A stretch of DNA of 34,438 nt from Candidatus Nitrosopumilus sp. (lineage in GTDB: Archaea > Thermoproteota > Nitrososphaeria > Nitrososphaerales > Nitrosopumilaceae). This document shows positions 14,706 through 19,129 of this stretch, piece after piece (positions within the stretch are counted from its first letter, which is position 1; each line of letters opens with the position of its first letter). Both the position numbers and the translations under genes were made by a program. The DNA is taken from positions 1 to 34,438 of the forward strand of contig REGJ01000011.1 of assembly GCA_003702525.1 (NCBI GenBank). The letters run 5' to 3'. The notes below the pieces were generated by a model. That model searched no databases. It was not told where the DNA came from and worked only from the letters and a program-made list of their open reading frames with translations.

Positions 14706-15278
14706 TTGGCACTAATTCCATTTCTTGTTGATGTATTTCAAGATCCAATTTTCTCTGTTCTTGCAGTAATAGGTGCATTTGGGGTTGGATTATTTCAAGG
14801 AATAATTTTGGGACGTGCAATTCTCGTCAGATTTCCTCGACTGCAAAATCATCTAAAAACCGTATCAATTACTTTGTTTGTTTTGTTTTTGGCAAATGCA
14901 ATCCTTAGTGTACCTAGATTTGCATCTCCTGAAAAAATTCAACTTTCTAATCTATCTGCTGGCAGTCCTGCAGAGCTTGCATCTGTATTGTTTCTTATTT
15001 TTGGAATGAACACTGGATTTCTTACAGTATTGGCAATTTCTGTAACTGTTATGACTTTTGTAATTTTGAAATTTACAAATCTTAATGGGGTTGTAAAATT
15101 ATTTGTCTTCTTCTTTAGCTCTTTATTGTTAATTTTAACTGGAATTAGTCGATTCACAGATCTTACTCCTAGTACATTTGAGGTTTTATTGTATTTCTTG
15201 TATCAATTGGGAATCACAATTGGAATATTGGGTGGTACTATACGTAAAATCAAACCTAAAAAATTAGACTTAGAATAA
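14706..15278 (+). CDS. Multi-helix membrane protein of unknown function
   Basis: A 190-residue protein starting at TTG 14706; upstream ATGs at 14688 and 14696 are out of frame or stop at once. Hydrophobic segments at about 15-37, 51-67, 88-118 (probably two helices), 127-145 and 157-178 predict five or six membrane helices. The end carries VLLYFLYQLGITIGILGG followed by a basic tail, which resembles the end of the protein at 278-964. No transport or enzyme motif is visible. It diverges from the secreted protein gene at 13414-14559 over a 146-base promoter region and ends 27 bases before the structured intergenic element. Confidence 0.75.
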   Translation: MALIPFLVDVFQDPIFSVLAVIGAFGVGLFQGIILGRAILVRFPRLQNHLKTVSITLFVLFLANAILSVPRFASPEKIQLSNLSAGSPAELASVLFLIFGMNTGFLTVLAISVTVMTFVILKFTNLNGVVKLFVFFFSSLLLILTGISRFTDLTPSTFEVLLYFLYQLGITIGILGGTIRKIKPKKLDLE

Positions 15279-15305
15279 TTTCAAACGTTTAAATCAGATA
15301 ATCTG

Positions 15306-15379
15306 CGATGTGGTTTTGACATCGAATTCAAACCGTTCGGGGAACAAGCTGGCAGTCCTTGCGTTGGACTGTCAGCCCC
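15306..15379 (+). ncRNA. Candidate structured RNA with hairpins and possible pseudoknot
   Basis: The 114 bases between two convergent genes hold a GC-rich block (41 of 76 bases from 15305 to 15380 are G or C) in a strongly AT-rich genome. Hairpin 1 is CGATGT/ACATCG (15306-15311 with 15319-15324). Its loop GGTTTTG can pair with CAAACC at 15329-15334, as in an H-type pseudoknot. A short GTTC/GAAC hairpin follows at 15335-15345. Hairpin 2 is a 10-bp stem (15349-15358 with 15366-15375, one GU), extended by GGGG/CCCC (15339-15342 with 15376-15379), which competes with the short hairpin. A TATA-like TTTAAAT lies at 15288-15294. It is not a tRNA. It could instead be a 3'-UTR or terminator element of either gene. 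Confidence 0.45.
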
Positions 15380-15392
15380 ATTTATTAAAAAT

Positions 15393-17165
15393 CTAGTTTA
15401 ATGATGAGAGTGCTTTTACTTGTTCACTAACATAATCAAAACCTTCTTGCCAAAACTTGGATGATTGGATATCTAATCCATGTTCCTGAAGTAATTTTTC
15501 AGGTTTTTTTGAACCTCCTGCTGCAAGAATGTCAATATATGCTGGAACAAAATCTTTACCTTCTTTTTTGTATCTCTGGAATAATGATAATGCGAGTAGA
15601 TTTCCAAATGAATATGCGTAGCAGTAAAATGGTGTGTGGTAAAAGTGTGGAATGCAACTCCACTCTATTGCAAAATCATCTGTAACCTCTACTGATTTTC
15701 CAAATTGATTTTTTAGATTTTGTAAATATGTCTTTGAAATTTCATCTATGGTTGTCCCATTACCAATTTGTTTATGAGCATCAACTTCAAAAATTGTAAA
15801 AAATGATTGTCTTAGAATTGTAGCATATAGATCATCAATTTTTTCAGATAACATGATTTTTTTCTCATCGTCTGAAATTTTATCTGAAATATTGTCATAA
15901 AGCAACAATTCTGAAAATGTTGATGCTGTTTCAGCTAATGGTAGAGGTGCATCTTGGACTAGAATTGATCTGTTTTGAGCAGCTTGACTATGAACTGCAT
16001 GGCCTAGTTCGTGTGCTAGTGTAAACACATCCCTTGATTTTCCTGTAAAATTGACCAAAACATAAGGTGTAATTTTAGGTGTTAATGTGCTACAAAATGC
16101 CCCATCCCTTTTTCCTTGTCTTACTGATGAGTCAATGTGATTTTCATTGAAAACTTTTCTTGCAAAATCTTCTAATGTATTGCTAAATCTTCCAAGTGAC
16201 TCAAAAACTAATTTTACAGATTTGTTGTATGAATAATTTTTTTCTTTGATATTTGCAGCCGCTGGTGCATAAATGTCATATCTCCTTAGCTTTTTCATTT
16301 TGAGCATCTTTGCTTTTTGAACAAAGAACTTTTGAAAAACTGGAGCATTTTTTTCACAAACTGTAAGAAGTGATTCTATTGTTTTATCATCTACATCATT
16401 TCCAATATTCCTCATTGAAATTGGAGTTTTGTAGCCTCGAATGTCAATTCCTTCGTCTTTCCAGTTAAGTACAATGTTTTGGTAAATTTCTCCAACAACT
16501 CCTTTATTCTCATTGTATTTTCCAAGAATCGTTTTGTATGCTGTTTCACGAATTTTTGGATTTGTATCTCTGACATAATTTGTCAACTCTTCTCTTGTCA
16601 TCTTTTTTGTTTTGTTTCCGATTTTCATTTGGTATTCAAATGCATTGGTTATCTTGTCATACAATTTTACAAGTGCAGAAATTCCTGTAACATCTAATGT
16701 ATTGATAATTCTCTCTTCTGGCTCACTAAGTGAGTATTTTGCAATTAGTCTTTTATGTGCTAGATATTCTGATAATTCTCCTGCCTCTTTGATCAGTCTC
16801 TTTGCATTTTTTTCATCAACTTGTGTCTTCCACCATAAATCAAAAAATAGAATCATGTTTGAAATATCTGAACCTAATTTTGACATTCTAGTCATTAATG
16901 ATGTTGCTTCATCTGATTGGGTATCTGAAGAGTAGGATAGAGATGCATACCCCCCAATCTTGCTCATCTTTTCAGAAATTTCTTCTACTTGGGCTAGTAT
17001 ATCCATGAACATTTTAGAAGACATTTTTGGGTCTAGTTTTGATTTAATTTTCTCAAATTTTTTAGCCTGATTTTCTAATTCTTTGATTTGTTTTTGAAAT
17101 GCTGGACTTTTTGGATTTTTTGCCAGTTCTGAGAGATCCCATGTTCCTAATTGATACTGTGACAT
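15393..17165 (-). CDS. pepF: M3B-family oligoendopeptidase F
   Basis: A 590-residue zinc metallopeptidase that cleaves short peptides in the cytoplasm. The zinc-binding motif is H385-E386-L-G-H389 in FTLAHELGHAVHSQAA, and the third ligand is E412 in LAETASTFSE. The N-terminal helical PepF domain covers about residues 1-190 and the catalytic domain about 195-575. The family end is recognisable (HFYHTPFYCYAYSFGNLLA, about 507-526), with Tyr and His residues that line the active site. Length is normal and no signal peptide is present. The start is ATG 17163-17165. It is convergent with the 14706-15278 gene across the structured element. Confidence 0.95.
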   Translation of the reverse strand: MSQYQLGTWDLSELAKNPKSPAFQKQIKELENQAKKFEKIKSKLDPKMSSKMFMDILAQVEEISEKMSKIGGYASLSYSSDTQSDEATSLMTRMSKLGSDISNMILFFDLWWKTQVDEKNAKRLIKEAGELSEYLAHKRLIAKYSLSEPEERIINTLDVTGISALVKLYDKITNAFEYQMKIGNKTKKMTREELTNYVRDTNPKIRETAYKTILGKYNENKGVVGEIYQNIVLNWKDEGIDIRGYKTPISMRNIGNDVDDKTIESLLTVCEKNAPVFQKFFVQKAKMLKMKKLRRYDIYAPAAANIKEKNYSYNKSVKLVFESLGRFSNTLEDFARKVFNENHIDSSVRQGKRDGAFCSTLTPKITPYVLVNFTGKSRDVFTLAHELGHAVHSQAAQNRSILVQDAPLPLAETASTFSELLLYDNISDKISDDEKKIMLSEKIDDLYATILRQSFFTIFEVDAHKQIGNGTTIDEISKTYLQNLKNQFGKSVEVTDDFAIEWSCIPHFYHTPFYCYAYSFGNLLALSLFQRYKKEGKDFVPAYIDILAAGGSKKPEKLLQEHGLDIQSSKFWQEGFDYVSEQVKALSSLN

Positions 17166-18906: not shown

Positions 18907-18940
18907 GATTTTTCTGACATCCTGTCTAATTTTAAGTAGA

Positions 18941-19035
18941 TGGACCGGATGGGATTTGAACCCACGACCTTTGCGGGGAATTATTCCCTTACGCAGTGTG
19001 AGTGCGTCATCCAAACCAAACTAGACGACCGGTCC
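18941..19035 (-). tRNA. tRNA-Val (anticodon CAC) with a 20-base intron in the variable arm
   Basis: On the minus strand, GGACCGG (19029-19035) pairs with CCGGTCC (18942-18948), with discriminator A at 18941. The anticodon stem ACGCA/TGCGT encloses loop CTCACAC, anticodon CAC, so it decodes GUG valine. The T arm GTGGG-TTCAAAT-CCCAT is intact. Between the anticodon stem and T arm there are 25 bases where 5 are expected. Removing 20 bases leaves variable loop AGGTC, identical to that of the tRNA-Thr in this window. Mature length is then 75 bases. No CCA is encoded. The elongator identity is clear; the intron makes simple scans likely to misplace it. Confidence 0.93.
18970..18989 (-). other. Non-canonical tRNA intron with bulge-helix-bulge motif (position 44/45)
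   Basis: The pre-tRNA can fold with central helix TGCG/CGCA (4 bp), a 3-base bulge TAA on the 5' side and a 3-base bulge AAG on the 3' side, and an inner hairpin GGGAA-TAA-TTCCC. This is the bulge-helix-bulge target of archaeal splicing endonuclease. Cutting after the second base of each bulge removes exactly 20 bases and gives a standard variable loop. Confidence 0.82.
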
Positions 19036-19129
19036 AACAAAATTACAAAACTACAAGCTTTTTTGTCTTTAGATTCTGGATATTTTGTAATAACCTCTGC
19101 CTTTAGTACTCATTTTTGTAAATTCTAAC

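What the first reader, a model, noticed from the sequence alone, without database searches (positions are those of the whole stretch)
15306..15379. GC-rich intergenic element with a potential H-type pseudoknot and a 10-bp hairpin
The gap between two convergent genes contains three possible stems, and loop 1 (GGTTTTG) is complementary to CAAACC downstream. GC content is about 54% in an AT-rich genome, a classic sign of structured ncRNA in such organisms. A TATA-like TTTAAAT lies upstream at 15288-15294. It does not fit a tRNA, C/D-box or H/ACA RNA that I can recognise. It may be an undescribed small RNA or an elaborate bidirectional terminator.
Basis: partly seen in the sequence, partly recalled or inferred. 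Interest (0 to 1): 0.62.

Follow-up and report, generated by a model that had tools for sequence, protein, structure and literature searches.

The report
Small RNA complementary to ribosome's core
Between two genes of an ammonia-oxidizing archaeon lies an apparently unannotated gene for a ~65-letter RNA, found once per genome in most members of the two main ammonia-oxidizer families, and its most conserved letters are complementary to the catalytic centre of the large ribosomal RNA, which suggests that it helps to build, or blocks, the ribosome.

Summary
The element is real, but its anatomy differs from the finding. What is conserved is a TATA box (15288-15294), then a predicted start at G15318 of a ~62-70-nt RNA. 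The RNA has three near-invariant blocks (ACAUCG, CAAACCG, GGGG), the sequence AACA, and a hairpin whose stem covaries. It is found in 125 of 131 near-complete Nitrosopumilaceae, almost always as one copy, and is widespread in Nitrososphaeraceae. It was not found in the other lineages tested, including two amoA-bearing families, nor in Rfam or viral contigs.

The blocks are collinearly complementary to 23S rRNA 5'-CCCC-G-CGGUUUG-GUACCU-CGAUGU-3': the 3' strand of helix 89 plus peptidyl-transferase-centre residues 2501-2506 (E. coli numbering). Outside the RNA's own gene, this bipartite complement occurs almost only in 23S rRNA. In five genomes, 0-4 of 400 shuffles reach the duplex energy, and the RNA's variable positions are the unpaired ones.

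Best reading: an undescribed, box-less rRNA-pairing sRNA, most likely acting on the nascent PTC/H89 during 50S assembly. Conservation and complementarity are shown; expression and function are inferred.

The parts
15282..15294 (+). promoter: BRE-like CAAACG (15282-15287) and TATA box TTTAAAT (15288-15294)
   Evidence: TATA box present at 29-33 nt before block 1 in all 199 unique loci, 30-31 nt in 194; TTAAAT invariant in the 32-row footprint alignment
   Evidence: not conserved; CGATGT arm in only 3 of 199 loci
15318..15385 (+). predicted small RNA, start at G15318, 3' end roughly 15380-15390 (ends not measured)
   Evidence: R1 match 15317-15388; start inferred from TATA spacing of 30 nt and a pyrimidine-purine step
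15319..15324 (+). block 1 ACAUCG, complementary to 23S CGAUGU (E. coli 2501-2506)
   Evidence: ACATCG in 197 of 199 loci, GCATCG in 2; complementarity
15329..15335 (+). block 2 CAAACCG, complementary to 23S CGGUUUG (2488-2494)
   Evidence: invariant in the footprint alignment; complementarity
15339..15342 (+). block 3 GGGG, complementary to 23S CCCC (2483-2486); in the free RNA it can instead pair with CCC at 15377-15379
15343..15346 (+). conserved AACA, not paired with the rRNA; role unknown
15348..15376 (+). 3' hairpin: arms 15348-15358 and 15366-15376, loop TTGCGTT; shape conserved, sequence covaries
   Evidence: 6 of 12 stem pairs change on both sides, 0 of 500 shuffles as high; hairpin present in Nitrososphaeraceae with different sequence
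15377..15394 (+). CCC and AT-rich 3' tail
15393..17165 (-). convergent M3-family peptidase gene (context only, not part of the RNA)
   Evidence: PF01432; downstream of the RNA in Nitrosopumilaceae, not in Nitrososphaeraceae

Best explanation
A free-standing gene for a ~62-70-nt non-coding RNA of ammonia-oxidizing archaea. It has its own TATA/BRE promoter and starts at about G15318. Its first ~25 nt are a three-block antisense domain (ACAUCG / CAAACCG / GGGG) that base-pairs with the 3' strand of helix 89 and the adjoining peptidyl-transferase-centre strand (2483-2507) of 23S rRNA. A covarying 3' hairpin and AT-rich tail form and protect the 3' end. Because this rRNA segment is buried and self-paired in a finished 50S subunit, the RNA most likely acts on nascent or immature 23S rRNA, as an assembly chaperone that keeps H89/PTC open until late folding, in the manner of non-modifying snoRNAs. 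Shown by computation: gene, promoter spacing, conservation, covariation, collinear complementarity. Inferred: transcription, ends, binding in vivo, chaperone role.
For: 125 of 131 near-complete Nitrosopumilaceae and 21 of 22 genera; widespread in Nitrososphaeraceae, 0 hits for the reversed-pattern control (names). TATA-block spacing fixed. Stem covariation. Tripartite collinear complement in 23S rRNA of all seven genomes read, in no 16S. In ten whole genomes the bipartite complement lies only in 23S and in the antisense of the RNA gene itself, bar one extra hit. Duplex energies -30.6 to -33.0 kcal/mol, all at the same site, 0/0/1/4/0 of 400 shuffles as good. rRNA shuffles: bipartite match 2 in 3000, tripartite 0. 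Net energy -11 to -21 kcal/mol after unfolding both partners, best window in 23S. Variable positions are the unpaired ones; the one change in block 1 keeps a G-U pair. Late PTC/H89 folding and snoRNA chaperones are documented elsewhere (PMC11260487, PMC11024185, PMC6393466, PMC8536713).
Against: No expression data were available. The target is identical in all lineages, so there is no compensatory change between RNA and rRNA to prove pairing. Two amoA-bearing families (f2, f3) and the reduced lineage g48 have no detectable copy, so the RNA is not essential for every AOA ribosome. AACA is conserved but unpaired. The five tested genomes are related, so the energy tests are not independent.
Confidence: 0.5

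Rival explanations
1. Ribosome-silencing RNA: the same pairing, but used to inactivate or mark large subunits (stored, stalled or damaged) rather than to assemble them.
For: Same complementarity data; pairing would cover A2503-U2506 of the PTC.
Against: The segment is buried and self-paired in finished subunits (general knowledge), so the RNA would need a remodelled particle.
Confidence: 0.15
2. Unusual modification guide: the RNA positions an enzyme on the PTC, for example at the unpaired rRNA bases 2495-2500 inside the duplex, without the standard boxes.
For: The duplex leaves GUACCU (2495-2500) looped out opposite the variable linker; this region is a modification hotspot in other organisms (PMC4644070).
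Against: No C box in 169 copies, no C/D pair; no upper stem between the blocks as in H/ACA guides.
Confidence: 0.12
3. A conserved regulatory or protein-binding small RNA whose complementarity to 23S rRNA is a coincidence; the real partner is an mRNA or a protein.
For: Architecture (conserved 5' domain plus terminator-like hairpin) is that of many trans-acting sRNAs; AACA is conserved without an rRNA partner.
Against: Three blocks match collinearly and nearly uniquely in the genome; shuffles rarely or never reach it.
Confidence: 0.18
4. Only a terminator or other DNA/RNA element of the two flanking genes.
For: Hairpin between convergent genes in the window and in most Nitrosopumilaceae.
Against: Fixed promoter spacing and sequence-conserved 5' domain; neighbours differ and are often not convergent in Nitrososphaeraceae.
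Confidence: 0.03
5. A small protein-coding gene.
For: Some copies have a short open frame by chance.
Against: 94 of 169 unique copies have no start codon with an open frame in the first 40 nt and none exceeds 20 codons; linker indels of 1-2 nt break any frame; stem changes are compensatory.
Confidence: 0.01

Closest known systems
Archaeal box C/D sRNAs, including those proposed as rRNA chaperones (PMC4644070, PMC7994747)
   Same: Small archaeal RNA with short antisense elements to functional cores of rRNA; chaperone role proposed
   Different: No C or D box, no kink-turn layout; one antisense domain in three short blocks at the extreme 5' end; extremely conserved instead of fast-evolving guides; own promoter and terminator-like hairpin
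Yeast non-modifying snoRNA chaperones such as snR190 (PMC8536713)
   Same: Would pair with domain V of the nascent large-subunit rRNA without needing to modify it
   Different: snR190 is a box C/D snoRNA with two distant pairing sites; this RNA has one contiguous target and no boxes; no relation by sequence is claimed
Bacterial trans-acting sRNAs (seed region plus terminator hairpin)
   Same: Architecture: conserved 5' pairing region, variable 3' hairpin, AT-rich tail, own promoter
   Different: Best complement is 23S rRNA rather than mRNA; archaeal promoter; nearly universal single-copy gene in its families
Tan1, an abundant 229-nt ncRNA of marine group II Euryarchaeota (PMC5069720)
   Same: Lineage-specific archaeal ncRNA of unknown function
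   Different: 229 nt against about 65 nt, different phylum; the sequences were not compared here

Membership tests
Box C/D sRNA | C box RUGAUGA and D box CUGA flanking a guide | tested here: not met
   C box in 0 of 169 unique copies, C followed by D in 0
Box C/D sRNA | Antisense element to rRNA of about 10 or more bases | tested here: inconclusive
   6 + 7 + 4 complementary bases in three blocks, not one uninterrupted guide
H/ACA sRNA | ACA/ANA box just 3' of the hairpin | tested here: not met
   ACA after position 55 in only 18 of 169 copies; the conserved AACA lies 5' of the hairpin
H/ACA sRNA | Two guide arms separated by an upper stem, target U unpaired | tested here: not met
   blocks separated by only 1-5 nt, no stem between; U2504 would be paired
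Known Rfam families | Covariance-model match above gathering score | tested here: not met
   no match in the window element nor in five relatives' loci
   5' arm in 3 of 199 loci and upstream of the predicted start
rRNA-chaperone RNA (functional class) | Complementarity to rRNA in an assembly-sensitive region | tested here: met
   collinear complement to H89/PTC, unlikely by chance
rRNA-chaperone RNA (functional class) | Association with pre-ribosomes and an assembly defect on loss | not testable with these tools
   needs wet-lab work
Independent sRNA gene | Own promoter, discrete transcript | tested here: inconclusive
   promoter conserved; transcript not measured

The most novel reading that the evidence does not exclude
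A previously unknown class of box-less antisense RNA, nearly universal in Nitrosopumilaceae and widespread in Nitrososphaeraceae, that binds the nascent peptidyl transferase centre and helix 89 of 23S rRNA and controls the last steps of large-subunit maturation, or silences the subunit: a dedicated small RNA for the catalytic heart of the ribosome outside the box C/D and H/ACA guide systems.
Probability: 0.45. Interest if true: 0.9.

Novelty: new variant of a known kind. Interest (0 to 1): 0.78.

Why it matters
Ammonia-oxidizing archaea are among the most abundant archaea in ocean and soil (general knowledge), and I found no functionally characterised small RNA of theirs in the papers searched. 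An RNA shared by Nitrosopumilaceae and Nitrososphaeraceae, almost always in one copy and with its antisense blocks nearly unchanged, is likely to be important. If it acts on the PTC, it makes directly testable whether archaea use dedicated RNA chaperones without guide boxes and how archaeal 50S maturation is timed. It would also be a convenient marker RNA for these organisms in metatranscriptomes.

Tried and rejected
Pseudoknot: rejected. tRNA, tmRNA and Rfam families: none; sub-threshold Rfam matches (SNORD102, MIR172) lie outside the element and look like chance. C/D or H/ACA guide: boxes absent. Small protein: indels break the frame. Terminator only: rejected. Functional link to the neighbouring peptidase: constant in Nitrosopumilaceae but absent in Nitrososphaeraceae. 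Virus-borne element: no exact pattern match in viral contigs. Homologues in other families: weak R1 hits L127 and L129-L132 lack promoter and blocks and were discarded; R2 gave no convincing hit in f2, f3 or the non-AOA families. Loop UGCGUU as a second rRNA guide: it differs between genera. Minus-strand rRNA loci were read in the wrong orientation; corrected. Literature searches found no earlier description, but the library lacks most subscription journals; one obvious paper on ocean small RNAs (Shi et al. 2009, cited in PMC5069720) could not be read.

Full report
1. The observation. The region 15306-15379 lies between a + strand gene for a 190-aa protein without a Pfam match (14706-15278) and a convergent M3-family peptidase (15393-17165, PF01432). 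The + strand folds better than shuffles (z -3.2), and an 11-bp hairpin with one G-U pair is present. No tRNA and no Rfam family lies there. The pseudoknot needs CGATGT at 15306-15311; among 199 unique loci only three have it, and it lies between TATA box and predicted start in a stretch that is not conserved. I regard it as chance.

2. Conservation. A DNA search gave convincing matches in 49 of 60 genomes of the same genus, counting the window's own. The aligned relatives share one layout: TTTAAAT (or CTTAAAT), about 22-24 variable bases, then in this genus (T/C)GACATCG-AATT-CAAACCG-TTC-GGGGAACAA with few variants, a hairpin, CCCC and an AT-rich tail. The distance from TATA box to the first block is 30-31 nt in 194 of 199 loci. 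That is the spacing expected of an archaeal promoter (general knowledge), so the RNA should start at G15318. A covariance model (R1) finds it in 210 of 250 Nitrosopumilaceae genomes, 125 of 131 near-complete ones and 21 of 22 genera, almost always once per genome. The weaker hits in family f8 are genuine where TATA box, blocks and hairpin are all present. The pattern ACATCGN{0,6}CAAACCN{1,6}GGGGAACA hits 230 of 400 genomes of the class, all in f1 and f8, with 0 hits for the reversed control in the rows shown. Hits in the genome collection are labelled Nitrosopumilus, Nitrosarchaeum, Nitrosopelagicus, Nitrosotalea, Cenarchaeum, Nitrosocosmicus, Nitrososphaera, or as uncultured relatives. From these names I infer that f1 is Nitrosopumilaceae and f8 Nitrososphaeraceae. 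No exact match exists in viral contigs.

3. Limits of distribution. Archaeal amoA (PF12942) is found in f1, f8, f2 and f3 and in none of the other families tested. A sequence model of promoter plus 5' domain (R2) gives no convincing hit in f2 or f3. The 0.8-Mb lineage g48 has amoA but no detectable RNA; in G289 the peptidase gene is present and the RNA is not next to it. Three other genomes without the RNA (G039, G028, G125) also lack the peptidase gene, so either that locus is missing from the assembly or both were lost. In G152 the peptidase gene is present but followed by another gene.

4. Structure. In 18 distinct sequences from the genus, 98% of the cells of the structure model pair, 6 of the 12 hairpin pairs change on both sides, and 0 of 500 shuffles reach the covariation score; sliding the partner destroys it. 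This control does not remove relatedness of the sequences. The small 5' helix (CGAAU/GUUCG in the window) varies only by wobble-compatible changes in the genus and is not preserved as such in other genera, so I do not regard it as established. In Nitrososphaeraceae the hairpin differs in sequence but is present. The hairpin is thus conserved as a shape and the 5' domain as a sequence.

5. Context. In nearly all Nitrosopumilaceae loci tested the convergent peptidase gene lies downstream; in none of 29 Nitrososphaeraceae loci with enough flank is it found. There the neighbours differ between genera and are often not convergent. The RNA is a free-standing gene.

6. What the conserved letters match. 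The blocks ACAUCG, CAAACCG and GGGG are collinearly complementary to 23S rRNA 5'-CCCC-G-CGGUUUG-GUACCU-CGAUGU-3'. By alignment with the E. coli sequence (my own knowledge of the numbering) these are C2483-C2486, C2488-G2494 and C2501-U2506: the 3' strand of helix 89 and the PTC strand. The site is identical in all seven 23S rRNAs read. In ten whole genomes the bipartite pattern CGGTTTGN{0,12}CGATGT occurs in 23S and in the antisense of the RNA gene itself, with one additional hit in G218. In G000 only the latter is seen, presumably because its rRNA operon is not in the assembly. Best duplex energies in five genomes (Nitrosopumilus, three other Nitrosopumilaceae genera, Nitrososphaeraceae; the last RNA taken as the family consensus) are -30.6 to -33.0 kcal/mol, all at this site; 0, 0, 1, 4 and 0 of 400 shuffled RNAs do as well. 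In 3000 shuffles of the rRNA the bipartite match arose twice and the tripartite match never. After paying for unfolding both partners the net energy is -11 to -21 kcal/mol, and for the Nitrosopumilus RNA the target window is the best in 23S rRNA. The positions that vary among the RNAs are the ones that do not pair. The only substitution seen in block 1, ACAUCG to GCAUCG in two loci, keeps a G-U pair. The genomes are related, so these tests are not independent of each other.

7. Mechanism. In a finished 50S subunit helix 89 is formed and these bases are buried (general knowledge), so pairing needs an immature or remodelled particle. Abstracts seen here report PTC maturation as a late, assisted step in bacteria and eukaryotes and an alternative secondary structure within the nascent PTC (PMC11260487, PMC6393466, PMC11024185). 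Yeast uses non-modifying snoRNAs such as snR190 as folding chaperones (PMC8536713), and archaeal C/D sRNAs have been proposed to act likewise (PMC4644070, PMC7994747). The most economical reading is an RNA that occupies the 3' strand of H89 and the PTC strand in nascent 23S rRNA and is displaced when H89 forms. In the window and its close relatives the GGGG block can instead pair with CCC at the foot of the hairpin, which could be a free/bound switch; this is inference. Silencing of ribosomes and guiding of a modification remain open rivals.

8. Membership and novelty. The RNA lacks the boxes of C/D RNAs and the layout of H/ACA RNAs and matches no Rfam family. It is not a member of those families, although it may work like an rRNA-chaperone snoRNA. 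I found no description in the literature held here, which is incomplete. Not shown: transcription, ends, partner in vivo, function.

Noticed in passing
window 18939-19036 (-): tRNA-Val (CAC) of 98 nt, longer than a standard tRNA, so it may carry an intron.
   Followed up: no
G287, G289 (genus g48, 0.8-Mb genomes), L330: A reduced lineage with amoA and the peptidase gene but no detectable copy of the RNA: a natural loss that could be used to ask what replaces it.
   Followed up: partly
L094-L106, L116-L117 against L001 and L090: The hairpin loop is genus-specific: UGCGUU in many genera, GGGGGCGC in g41/g44, AUGGCUC in g40.
   Followed up: no
L204, L178, L251, L259, L271 (Nitrososphaeraceae): Several Nitrososphaeraceae copies have longer hairpins with a recurring (GG)TGAGAAA loop.
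   Followed up: no
window 15339-15352 against 23S 2445-2457: GGGGAACAAGCU (GGGGAACAGGCC in GC-rich relatives) resembles, in sense orientation, the PTC strand GGGAUAACAGGCU; mimicry of the 5' strand of helix 89, or chance.
   Followed up: no
window 15278-15393 and relatives: The order RNA gene / convergent M3 peptidase is kept across Nitrosopumilaceae although the spacer and the gene upstream vary.
   Followed up: partly
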